Part shown: one piece after another, positions 40,866 to 52,766 of the stretch
Layout of the letters: every line of letters begins with the position of its first letter
Numbering within the stretch: position 1 is the stretch's first letter
Assembly (NCBI GenBank): GCA_010015675.1
Contig: ML976992.1
Location: 921,194-985,193, forward strand
Length of the DNA stretch: 64,000 nt
From: Byssothecium circinans
Taxonomy: Eukaryota > Ascomycota > Dothideomycetes > Pleosporales > Massarinaceae
Reading direction: 5' to 3'
Made by a program: the position numbers and the translations under genes
The notes under the pieces: model-generated
What the model was told of the DNA's origin: nothing
The model's database searches: none
The model's input: the letters and a program-made list of their open reading frames with translations, nothing else

Positions 40866-42089
40866 TTTGGAGATGGATAGCGGCCGTGCGAGTAATGACG
40901 ACGAAGTGAAAGAATAGACTTTTTATGATATGAAAAGGTTAAGGAAGGGCTGGAAAAGCGATTTGTCTGGTGGTGCTGAGTATGACTCGGTTGGGGGTTA
41001 TAACGTTTGTTGGACGGGAGTGGCGACGTGGGTGGATAGCGTAGTGTAGTGTAAGGGTTGGTTGCATGTTTGCATCACCTCGGCTTTGTTACAAGACATG
41101 AGAATCTTTTACTCTTTGATATCTACGCGGTATACCATCAACGACTACCTAAAACCATCGTCTATGGCATTGTATCCGTTCCAGACTGTAACTCGCGATT
41201 AACTGCCGCCGATAAAAGTTCGTTTACCCTTAGTCGCCACGTGTCTCTTCGCATACCTAGGCACAGGGCGATACGATGATCGAAGCTTTTTATGCATGGA
41301 AAAGCCATGAGGTATTGCAGTCTTGGACGGATCGAGGAGCAGTTCGCGCCCAAACGCGCACGGACGGACACACAATACCTGGCGGCCACGCTACCTGCTA
41401 CTATGTGCGTTATAACTTCCAAGCCTACTATTACCTGTTCGGTGAATGTGAATGGGGCAGCAGGCAGCTAAGGCAGTGAGTTTACTGTGTGCATGATGTG
41501 GGGAAGACCATCGTGGAATCAGTGAGGCCTGGGGGAGAAGTTGTAAGTAAGGTTGATGCTGTTTTGTACTTTTTTAGTTCGTACTTGTTAGTTCTTTGGT
41601 AGGTACTTGGGTGTAACACTGTACACAGAATACGGAGACATACTACTGGTGGCTATACGTGCTCGCATATCCGTATACCATAGTAGGTAGTACCTTAATG
41701 TACACATACCACACCCTATACAAACCTATTGCACGAATTCCGTGGGGATTACTTCAATAACCTTCACAAATCCATCGCCTCTCTCTCAAAGCCCCACAAA
41801 AACAAATCTCAGCATCAACACAAGAACCAAGCCTACGCATCAATCCAAGCCCAATCCCATCCCCACAAGCCAAGAAGGAAAAAGACGAGCCTTCGTACAC
41901 CGTAATAGATAGAATACGCCCACACAAGTTCTACCCTAGCTTTACTTGCACACCTGCACGAACCCCAACGCTTGCCTATACTAAAAGCAAAAACAAAAGT
42001 TGCAACTAAAGTACGTCACCTCCACTACCTATCCTATGTATGAAGGCAGAATGAAAAGCAAAAACAAAAGCAAAAAAAAAGAAGGTGAT
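40866..42089. other. Intergenic between SEC26 and the tRNA gene
   Basis: 1.2 kb. Plus-strand frames at 41058-41479 have no domain. From about 41800 the plus strand is A-rich with repeated AAAACAAAAG-like tracts. Confidence 0.5.
42072..42080 (-). terminator. RNA polymerase III terminator of the tRNA gene
   Basis: Nine consecutive T on the minus strand, starting 9 nt past the tRNA 3' end. This is the standard Pol III stop and suggests that the tRNA gene is transcribed in the usual way. Confidence 0.85.
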
Positions 42090-42220
42090 TAGCTGCTATC
42101 GGTTTCGATCCGATGACCTCCGGGTAACTCTATGAGCCCTGATGATTCGTTAGTACAAATTACACCCGCATTTAGGGAATGCTAGAACTTACCGGCGCGC
42201 TTCCACTGCGCCAAGCAGCT
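42090..42220 (-). tRNA. Initiator tRNA-Met (CAT) with two insertions, one spliceosomal-intron-like
   Basis: Initiator identity rests on A1 with a 7-bp acceptor stem (AGCTGCT/AGCAGCT), the D-arm TGGCGCAGTGGAAGCGC, and ATCGAAA in the T loop in place of TTCGA. Anticodon CAT lies at 42132-42134. The gene is 131 nt. Insertion 1 (42139-42192, 54 nt) splits the 5' strand of the anticodon stem; it starts GTAAGT, contains TACTAAC about 10 nt before its end, and ends CAG. Insertion 2 (42126-42130, GAGTT) lies one base 3' of the anticodon, the canonical tRNA intron site. Without both, 72 nt remain with an anticodon arm CCGGG-CTCATAA-CCCGG, the exact length of yeast initiator tRNA. The Pol III terminator and intact A and B boxes argue against simple decay. 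Splicing is inferred. Confidence 0.85.
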
Positions 42221-42856
42221 TTTTTTGATTTCGCTATTGCTGGAATTGATGGAAATTTACACGCTCAGAAAATATATATAGCATCTCACAGCAACGGGAG
42301 ATGTGGATTTTCACCCTGCCCTTTGTGTGGTGCGGAAGAGGGGCACAGGATAGGCGAAAAGTGGGGTTAGGGACGGCGTGGTGTGGTGCAGAATTTTCCG
42401 TTGGGAAGGTCGTGTGGGGGTTTGTGGTTGGGTGAGTCAGGGGTACCAACGTAGAACGTCAACACCACAGGTTAACGCGAGTGGAATCAAGCAAACAATA
42501 ACATATCGCGTATTAAACGGAGTCGAGGGTTGTTCCTACGAAATTAACCATCAAACCGAGTAAAAACAATATCCAGCTCTCTCCTAAATTAAATCGTTAC
42601 ATGACTCCAGAAGAGTGATCAAGCTCTTTCCATCCCGTCTACGCACTCCGTCTAACCACTACAACAACCGCATACATGCTACACCATGTTAGAATAAGCT
42701 ACGCTTTACACACTACGCAAATAACTCAATCAAAACACATGTTTACATTCCCATGGATATGACGGTCTATACACAAAGGCCAAAGGTCAAGACGACGAAT
42801 GCCAGTAGCACTCCATCCCCAACCCCAATCCAAACTCCAAATAATATCAACACTCA
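42221..42856. other. Intergenic between the tRNA and the LCB kinase
   Basis: 636 bp; no gene recognised. A T-run directly abuts the tRNA 5' end on the plus strand. Confidence 0.5.
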
Positions 42857-51698: not shown

Positions 51699-52766
51699 CT
51701 ATGCATCAATCTCCCTTCTCAAGCCTTGTCGACCCCTGGCAATGACATCACCCAGGTCCAGGCCCGCAGCCTTACTGCGCACCCCAGAGATGAGGCGCTG
51801 CCCGCCGTCCTTGCTGTTCTTGTGCTTTTGTTCTTCCGCTGCGTCTTCGGCTTCTCTCAAGCAAACACGCTCACTGCGCTGTTGTTCCAGCGAAGAGGCA
51901 TCTGCTTGCATAGCCGCGAGGCGTTCTGCCGCACTAGGTCCGTCATCTTTCGCTGGAGGAGTGCGATCTTGGCGGCGGGAGTTGTCGCGATGGTTTCGAT
52001 AGGGCGAGCGCGAGCGTCGACGGTAGCTATCGTGATCATCTCGCCTCCGAGGTGAGCGCGAACGTCTACGATAGCCATCGCGATCTTCTCGCTTCTGGGG
52101 TGAGCGTGAGCGTCTCCTGTACTCTCTCTCGTGGGAATGGCGTCGTTCTCGATGGTGGTCTCGCTCACGGGAGTGGTGGCGGTCGCGGCGGTGGTGTCGC
52201 TCACGTGAGTGATCACGGTCTCGAGAGTGATGTCGATGCCTATGCTTGCGTTCCTTCTCCTTTGCCCGTTTCTCCTCGTACTGCTTATTCTTCTGCGCCG
52301 CCTTCAACGCTTTGAGCTGCATCTCCATCTTCTGTTTTTGGATCAGCAGGAGCGGATCCTCGAGAACTTTCTTCTGCGTGTCTCGCGCAGAGGTAACGTG
52401 CGTCTGTCCCACGGCATCGATGCCCACTGCGGCTCCCTTTTGCAGACTCTGTGTGTCGGTGCCCTTTATAAGGCCGTCAATCCTCCGCTTCCCTAGAAGA
52501 TAGCCTTCCCGCTCCTCTGTGACACCTGCGCCATCGGCACCTGGGCCGTTGTACATCCATTCGACCCGCTTAGTGGCGACTTTTCCGCCTGCTGCTTCTT
52601 GGAGTCGTTGCAGCTCCTCAATCTGTCGTTCCTCCTCGAGCTCCTTCTTTCGTTTCTCTATAACTTTGCGCTCGGCCAAAGCAGCGGACTCTTCTTTCCA
52701 GACGCGCTCTTGGTTGCTCCGGATCCCTGGATGCCAAGACTTCTTCGTATTGAGGTCACCACCCAT
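51699..52766 (-). CDS. CWC25: Pre-mRNA-splicing factor Cwc25
   Basis: One exon, 355 aa. It starts [20 protein letters not shown] followed by [20 protein letters not shown], the conserved Cir_N/Cwc25 N-terminus, then VEWMYNGP and [12 protein letters not shown]. Residues about 185-265 are a dense Arg/His/Asp/Ser region with SPRRRDD-like repeats. Cwc25 joins the spliceosome after Prp2 action and promotes the first transesterification. Its N-terminal part contacts the branch helix; the RS/RD region is probably disordered. Confidence 0.94.

What the first reader, a model, noticed from the sequence alone, without database searches (positions are those of the whole stretch)
42090..42220. Initiator tRNA-Met gene interrupted by a spliceosomal-type intron in the anticodon stem
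Seen: a 54-nt insertion (42139-42192) with GTAAGT at its start, TACTAAC about 10 nt before its end, and CAG at its end, placed between bases of the anticodon stem, not at the 37/38 site used by tRNA endonuclease. Removing it, with the GAGTT at 42126-42130, leaves a perfect 72-nt initiator tRNA with all stems paired and a Pol III terminator. Known: nuclear tRNA introns are cut by the tRNA endonuclease, while mRNA-type introns in Pol III genes are known for some fungal U6 snRNA genes and interpreted as reverse splicing. Inference: an mRNA intron entered a tRNA gene and is removed by the spliceosome. If it is a required iMet gene, translation initiation would depend on mRNA splicing.
Basis: partly seen in the sequence, partly recalled or inferred. 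Interest (0 to 1): 0.88.

Follow-up and report, generated by a model that had tools for sequence, protein, structure and literature searches.

The report
tRNA genes split by mRNA-type introns
In this fungus the initiator tRNA gene, and more than twenty other tRNA genes, are interrupted by introns of the kind normally found in messenger RNAs, so making basic protein-synthesis parts appears to depend on the mRNA splicing machine and not only on the usual tRNA-cutting enzyme.

Summary
The minus-strand gene 42220-42090 is an initiator tRNA-Met with a 54-nt GTAAGT..TACTAAC..CAG intron between bases 29 and 30; GAGTT is a separate tiny intron at the ordinary 37/38 site. The only other initiator gene found, diverged, carries a different intron at the same site with the same signals. 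Of 64 tRNA genes I could delimit, 23 carry 25 such introns, in acceptor stem, D-loop, anticodon stem, variable loop, T-stem or T-loop. All 25 are GT/GC..AG, 48-64 nt, with a branch-like motif; 0 of 49 distinct 37/38 introns are GT/GC..AG. They resemble seven mRNA introns of the window's coatomer gene. An Arg gene spliced in silico is 72/72 identical to the exons of an uninterrupted copy. Two Lys genes whose intron splits the Pol III B box carry a B-like box inside the intron. Every initiator, elongator-Met, Asn and Lys gene found is interrupted, so these can hardly all be pseudogenes. Removal by the spliceosome is inferred from sequence; no RNA data were available. Ten searches of a partial library showed no earlier report.

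The parts
42270..42280 (-). TATA-like element (TATATATATTT) upstream of the tRNA gene
   Evidence: sequence; TATA-like hexamers start 60, 58 and 56 nt upstream of nt 1
42193..42220 (-). exon 1 of initiator tRNA-Met (nt 1-29), with the A box TGGCGCAGTGG
42139..42192 (-). 54-nt spliceosomal-type intron between nt 29 and 30: GTAAGT ... TACTAAC ... CAG
   Evidence: best structure-restoring deletion
42149..42155 (-). branch-point-like TACTAAC of that intron; branch A 11 nt before the intron's end
42131..42138 (-). exon 2, GGCTCATA (nt 30-37), with the anticodon CAT
42126..42130 (-). 5-nt intron GAGTT at the ordinary 37/38 site (tRNA endonuclease type)
42090..42125 (-). exon 3 (nt 38-73), with the B box GGATCGAAACC
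42072..42080 (-). run of nine T, Pol III terminator
   Evidence: sequence

Best explanation
In this fungus many nuclear tRNA genes contain ordinary U2-type spliceosomal introns at sites other than 37/38. Inferred pathway: Pol III transcribes the interrupted gene from an upstream TATA-like element and the internal A and B boxes; the spliceosome removes the 48-64-nt intron, which lets the cloverleaf form; the tRNA endonuclease and ligase then remove the 37/38 intron where there is one. Shown here: anatomy, signals, recurrence, empty sites, retained or replaced promoter boxes. Inferred: transcription by Pol III, removal by the spliceosome, and the order of the two steps.
For: 25 of 25 extra introns in 23 genes are GT/GC..AG, 48-64 nt, with the branch A 9-12 nt from the end in 24 of 25; 0 of 49 distinct 37/38-site introns are GT/GC..AG. 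Seven introns of the coatomer-beta gene in the window show the same grammar at 47-60 nt. Scoring by cloverleaf alone gives a best deletion set that contains a GT/GC..AG segment with branch motif in 17 of 21 single-intron genes, against 1 of 73 other T-arm hits. Spliced Arg-ACG equals the exons of an uninterrupted paralogue in 72 of 72 bases, Thr-AGT in 71 of 72. Both initiator genes found have the intron at 29/30 with diverged interiors. A box intact in 22 of 23 unspliced genes, a B-like box in 23 of 23, and in both genes split at 57/58 the only one is inside the intron. Every initiator, elongator-Met, Asn and Lys gene found is interrupted.
Against: No RNA evidence. The Arg-ACG intron has an untypical branch motif (CTAAA, 5 nt from the end). 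Arg-CCT lacks a regular A box. The tRNA inventory is incomplete (no Tyr, Trp, Leu-CAG, Val-TAC), so uninterrupted copies of some types may have been missed. No relative could be compared.
Confidence: 0.92

Rival explanations
1. The interrupted genes are pseudogenes hit by insertions, and working uninterrupted copies exist elsewhere in the genome.
For: Four interrupted genes do have an uninterrupted counterpart with the same anticodon: Thr-AGT, Arg-ACG, Ile-AAT, His-GTG. Searches were pattern-based and incomplete.
Against: No uninterrupted initiator, elongator-Met, Asn or Lys gene was found. Stems stay paired after in-silico splicing, scores 21.1-24.5. Splice signals are kept while intron interiors diverge between gene pairs, and promoter boxes are kept or replaced.
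Confidence: 0.04
2. The introns are removed not by the spliceosome but by the tRNA endonuclease or another RNA enzyme, as for the non-canonical tRNA introns of archaea or Cyanidioschyzon.
For: Non-canonical tRNA introns at similar sites exist in archaea, nucleomorphs and C. merolae (passages of PMC4090602); the same genes often also carry a 37/38 intron.
Against: 0 of 25 junctions show the four-base-pair core of a bulge-helix-bulge, with 0.43 expected from shuffles (a simple test of one fixed geometry). 25 of 25 carry mRNA splice signals that nothing in that pathway asks for.
Confidence: 0.03
3. Assembly or sequencing artefact.
For: One assembly only; no reads were available.
Against: 25 introns with one grammar on many contigs, and paralogues with and without them.
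Confidence: 0.01

Closest known systems
mRNA-type introns in fungal snRNA genes (U6, U2)
   Same: A spliceosomal-type intron in a small structured RNA gene; U6 is a Pol III gene (recalled), so the spliceosome is thought to act on a Pol III transcript. Seen as reference titles.
   Different: Here the genes are tRNA genes, which have their own intron-removal enzymes, and there are at least 23 of them with introns at many sites. The U6 gene found in this genome matches Rfam U6 over its full length with no insertion.
Spliceosomal introns of fungal U3 snoRNA genes and of ascomycete rDNA
   Same: Normal splice and branch signals in genes of non-coding RNA (U3: passages of PMC5832005; rDNA: a reference title).
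   Different: A different RNA class and, by recall for rDNA, a different polymerase; no B-box constraint comparable to the one seen here.
Nuclear tRNA introns at 37/38 removed by the tRNA endonuclease
   Same: They occur in the same genes: GAGTT in the window gene, and 49 distinct ones in the set.
   Different: 5-43 nt, at 37/38, none GT/GC..AG; the extra introns are 48-64 nt, elsewhere, and all GT/GC..AG.
Non-canonical tRNA introns of archaea, nucleomorphs and Cyanidioschyzon merolae
   Same: Introns at acceptor, D-arm, anticodon-stem and T-arm sites, sometimes several per gene (passages of PMC4090602).
   Different: Those are attributed to the splicing endonuclease and bulge-helix-bulge-like junctions, or are 3-24 nt long (Guillardia nucleomorph); here 0 of 25 junctions have the four-pair core and 25 of 25 have mRNA-type ends.

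Membership tests
U2-type spliceosomal intron | GT..AG (or GC..AG) ends | tested here: met
   25 of 25: 23 GT, 2 GC, all ending AG; ends were picked with this in mind, but a scan without splice information gives them in 17 of 21 genes
U2-type spliceosomal intron | branch-point motif near the 3' end | tested here: met
   CTAAC, CTGAC or CTAAT with the branch A 9-12 nt from the end in 24 of 25; CTAAA at 5 nt in Arg-ACG
U2-type spliceosomal intron | length and signals like the mRNA introns of the same genome | tested here: met
   48-64 nt against 47-60 nt for seven introns of one protein gene in the window; a small reference set
U2-type spliceosomal intron | removed by the spliceosome through a lariat | not testable with these tools
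   no RNA data
tRNA endonuclease intron of nuclear tRNA genes | position 37/38 | tested here: not met
   none of the 25 lies there; GAGTT of the window gene does, and is taken as one
bulge-helix-bulge tRNA intron | four-base-pair central helix between two three-base bulges at the junctions | tested here: not met
   0 of 25; shuffles give 0.43
introner-like element family | introns at different sites share sequence | tested here: not met
   interior alignment scores: 17.0 for the eMet a/b pair at the same site, one other pair at 9.5 against a shuffled maximum of 9.0 (the shuffles used whole introns), the rest at or below 8.0
functional Pol III tRNA gene | A box, B box and T-run terminator | tested here: met
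   A box in 22 of 23 and a B-like box in 23 of 23 unspliced genes; T-run for the window gene; transcription itself not tested

The most novel reading that the evidence does not exclude
In this lineage the spliceosome has become an obligate tRNA-maturation enzyme. Initiator Met, elongator Met, Asn and Lys tRNAs, and several Arg, Thr, Ser, Ala, Val and Pro isoacceptors, can be made only after mRNA-type splicing of a Pol III transcript. Some pre-tRNAs need two machines and three excisions (Arg-TCT, with an 8-nt exon between two spliceosomal introns; elongator Met a). Selection has kept the Pol III promoter working by tolerating introns beside the boxes or by supplying a B box from within the intron. 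Gain or loss is recent enough to leave practically identical genes with and without the intron.
Probability: 0.82. Interest if true: 0.95.

Novelty: new variant of a known kind. Interest (0 to 1): 0.93.

Why it matters
Nuclear tRNA introns are taught as a class that the spliceosome does not touch. A genome in which over a third of the tRNA genes I could delimit, including both initiator genes found, carry spliceosomal-type introns would couple tRNA supply and translation initiation to mRNA splicing. It would show that the spliceosome handles Pol III transcripts as a routine, with exons that contribute as little as 3-8 nt to the mature RNA, and it would explain tRNAs missing from standard annotation of such genomes. 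Paralogues with and without the intron make the question of how spliceosomal introns are gained directly testable.

Tried and rejected
Relatives: the initiator D-arm pattern in viral contigs gave 6 stretches from 5 contigs, none a eukaryotic initiator gene by eye. An Asn and a Lys exon pattern in viral contigs and the Asn pattern in the prokaryote genome collection gave 0 each. No collection of eukaryote genomes was on hand, so the spread across Pleosporales is untested.

Introner-like elements as one source: not supported; introns at different sites do not share sequence beyond the shuffled range, apart from one marginal pair. Bulge-helix-bulge introns: not supported. U6 interrupted too: the full-length U6 match at C14:277621 shows no insertion; a second, partial match lies nearby on the other strand.

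Limits of my scans. The deletion scan takes one deletion, so Arg-TCT and eMet a (two introns each) were left out: 21 of 23 genes were scanned. It could not reach the true deletion of Pro-CGG and gives many ties in loops. Of the 74 control loci one was a second copy of a real gene (L076, the Lys-CTT a locus) and was dropped, leaving 73. The 49 introns at 37/38 come from the genes only; Val-AAC (three) and Phe-GAA, fetched later, were not in that count; four of the 49 contain a CTRAY motif. The count of 41 genes without extra introns uses my own score cut-off of 21.5 plus L007, an identical second copy of L006. Loci looked at and left unresolved, in neither count: L042/L053, L052, L067, L070/L106, L092, L116, L140-L142, L145 and SINE-like matches (L044, L045, L048, L049, L051, L056). 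Of the 50 Rfam matches two (C44:42821, C20:597918) were not fetched. No background rate was computed for the TATA-like elements.

Literature: ten searches of the held library and passages of PMC4090602, PMC5832005, PMC8393795, PMC3978253 and PMC2586383. None reported spliceosomal introns in nuclear tRNA genes. The library lacks most subscription papers and all bioRxiv preprints. The paper on fungal U6 introns cited in PMC5832005 was not held.

Full report
WHAT IS IN THE WINDOW. On the minus strand, 42220 to 42090 is an initiator tRNA-Met gene: exon 1 (28 nt), a 54-nt insertion at 42192-42139 (GTAAGT ... TACTAAC GAATCATCAG), then GGCTCATA, GAGTT and the rest of the gene, followed by nine T at 42080-42072. 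With both insertions removed the cloverleaf is complete: AGCTGCT TG GCGC AGTGGAA GCGC G CCGGG CTCATA A CCCGG AGGTC ATCGG ATCGAAA CCGAT AGCAGCT A. The A1-U72 pair, the GGG:CCC of the anticodon stem and the ATCGAAA T-loop are hallmarks of eukaryotic initiator tRNA (recalled). The insertion splits the anticodon stem between 29 and 30. GAGTT lies at 37/38, the ordinary place of nuclear tRNA introns, so the gene carries two introns of two kinds.

HOST. The window's coatomer-beta fragment is closest, among named sources, to Pleosporales proteins (Trematosphaeria pertusa 93%, Paraconiothyrium brasiliense 93%, Aaosphaeria arxii 92% over 88-90% of the query; 120 of 2583 hits were listed; the order is by recall). 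The assembly has 48.4 Mb in 109 contigs. I take it as a Pleosporales-like fungus; the species is unknown.

IS THERE AN INTACT INITIATOR GENE? A T-arm pattern with up to one mismatch gave six places: the window, a second initiator gene (G000:C60:62915, minus), and four that are not tRNA by eye. The second gene has the same insertion site, a different 49-nt intron (GTAAGC ... CACTAACCAAATCAG) and a 10-nt intron at 37/38; its exons, counted with that small intron, are 74% identical to the first gene's. A D-arm pattern with up to one mismatch gave seven places, of which only the window is an initiator gene. BLAST with the spliced gene returned only the window's two exon pieces; it missed the diverged second gene, so its reach is limited. 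Among 50 Rfam tRNA matches at E up to 10, of which 48 were fetched and looked at, none is an uninterrupted initiator gene.

IT IS NOT ONE GENE. I collected tRNA genes with Rfam, T-arm plus terminator patterns and a D-arm pattern, and fetched stretches. I could delimit 64 genes: 41 uninterrupted or with a 37/38 intron only (40 by sequence plus one identical copy) and 23 with 25 further introns. Sites: 3/4 in Thr-CGT and Pro-CGG; 4/5 in Arg-ACG; D-loop in eMet a and b, Thr-AGT, Arg-CCT, Arg-CCG, Arg-TCT, Ala-CGC and Val-CAC (the last at its 3' edge); 25/26 in Ile-AAT; 26/27 in Arg-TCT; 29/30 in both initiator genes; variable loop in Ser-GCT; 50/51 in Thr-TGT; 52/53 in Asn a and b, Lys-CTT a and b, and His-GTG; 53/54 in eMet a; 57/58 in Lys-CTT c and Lys-TTT. 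Arg-TCT has two such introns around an 8-nt exon, plus a 37/38 intron; eMet a also has two plus a 37/38 intron.

WHY THEY ARE SPLICEOSOMAL-TYPE. All 25 begin GT (23) or GC (2) and end AG, are 48-64 nt long (median 52), and have CTAAC, CTGAC, CTAAT or once CTAAA near the end, with the branch A 9-12 nt from the end in 24 of 25. Of 49 distinct 37/38-site introns in the same genome none is GT/GC..AG, and four contain CTRAY anywhere. Seven introns of the coatomer-beta gene in the window, located by aligning a relative's protein and then placed on GT..AG ends, are 47-60 nt with the same grammar. To avoid choosing ends by eye I scored all single deletions of 30-99 nt by cloverleaf alone. In 17 of 21 single-intron genes the best set contains a GT/GC..AG segment with a branch motif. 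In 13 of these the best set has at most eight segments; in Thr-TGT and Thr-CGT it is that one segment alone. In Thr-AGT, Ser-GCT, Arg-CCT and Arg-CCG many cuts tie. The four failures are eMet b, Ala-CGC and Val-CAC, where another D-loop cut scored slightly higher, and Pro-CGG, whose true deletion my limits excluded. Among 73 other T-arm hits (74 run, one duplicate of a real gene dropped) the best score never reached 21 (highest 19.7), against 20 of 21 in the real set, and one of the 73 had such a segment. No junction has the four-pair core of a bulge-helix-bulge (0 of 25, shuffles 0.43).

WHY THE GENES ARE PROBABLY ALIVE. With the 37/38 introns also taken out, spliced Arg-ACG equals the exons of a paralogue without the extra intron in 72 of 72 bases, and Thr-AGT in 71 of 72; Ile-AAT is 95% identical to one, His-GTG 75%. 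eMet b has an uninterrupted T-stem where eMet a has an intron. Gene pairs that share a site keep splice signals while the interiors diverge (initiator, Asn, Lys-CTT). Pol III promoter boxes survive: a regular A box in 22 of 23 unspliced genes (not in Arg-CCT), a B-like box in 23 of 23. Introns at 52/53 and 53/54 end in the G or AG that completes the B box. In both genes split at 57/58 the only B-like box is inside the intron (GGTTCGAATC in Lys-TTT, AGTTCGAATC in Lys-CTT c). A TATA-like element starts 33-67 nt upstream of nt 1 in 20 of 22 genes with at least 58 nt of upstream sequence (Asn a has none, Asn b one at 73). This includes the three genes whose intron follows nt 3 or 4 and pushes the A box 51-56 nt downstream (no background rate computed). 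Every initiator, elongator-Met, Asn and Lys gene found is interrupted.

HOW IT MOST LIKELY WORKS. Shown: anatomy, signals, recurrence, empty sites, promoter boxes. Inferred: Pol III makes the long precursor; the spliceosome removes the mRNA-type intron first, since in many cases a stem of the cloverleaf is split by it; endonuclease and ligase then remove the 37/38 intron. Origin by reverse splicing followed by reverse transcription would fit scattered sites and empty paralogues, but was not tested; no shared repeat family explains them.

WHAT IS KNOWN. Spliceosomal introns are known in fungal U3, U6 and U2 genes and in ascomycete rDNA (passages and reference titles). Non-canonical tRNA introns are known from archaea, nucleomorphs and C. 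merolae (passages). In ten library searches (listed under Tried and rejected) I saw no report of spliceosomal introns in nuclear tRNA genes; the library is partial, so earlier description cannot be excluded. I rate it a new variant of a known kind: a known machine, by inference, on a class of substrates held to be outside its reach.

LIMITS. One assembly, no RNA, no relatives. The tRNA inventory lacks Tyr, Trp, Leu-CAG and Val-TAC. Introns in loops cannot be placed by structure alone; there the ends rest on splice consensus and on paralogues.

Noticed in passing
L042 (G000:C43:364649-364720, +), L053 (G000:C10:772867-772938, +): Two tRNA-like genes that fold with an 8-nt anticodon loop containing TCAC, each followed by a second T-arm-like sequence; unexplained, possibly pseudogenes.
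   Followed up: no
L070 (G000:C4:184026, +), L106 (G000:C18:252286, +): A conserved pair of tRNA-like genes with acceptor, D and T stems but no clear anticodon arm; perhaps another interrupted tRNA that my single-deletion scan did not resolve.
   Followed up: partly
L044, L045, L049, L051, L056 (several contigs): A repeated tRNA-like family (GGTGGGATGGCTCAGTAGTAGAGTGCTGC...) that looks like a tRNA-derived SINE.
   Followed up: no
G000:C14:277874-277936, - (L060): A partial second U6 match in inverted orientation about 150 bases from the full-length U6 match.
   Followed up: no
L057 (Arg-CCT) and L104 (Arg-TCT): The two GC..AG introns of the set sit in the D-loop of Arg tRNAs, at neighbouring positions.
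   Followed up: partly
L146 and L147 (elongator Met): The D-loop introns of the two elongator-Met genes share their last 18 bases (AAGCTAATCCTTATTAAG) and end in AAG, unlike the YAG ends of the other 23 introns.
   Followed up: no
window 51699-52766, -: A CWC25-family pre-mRNA splicing factor gene lies about 9.5 kb from the tRNA gene; probably coincidence.
   Followed up: no
G000, tRNA inventory: No gene for Tyr, Trp, Leu-CAG or Val-TAC was delimited; they may be interrupted in ways that break both search patterns.
   Followed up: no
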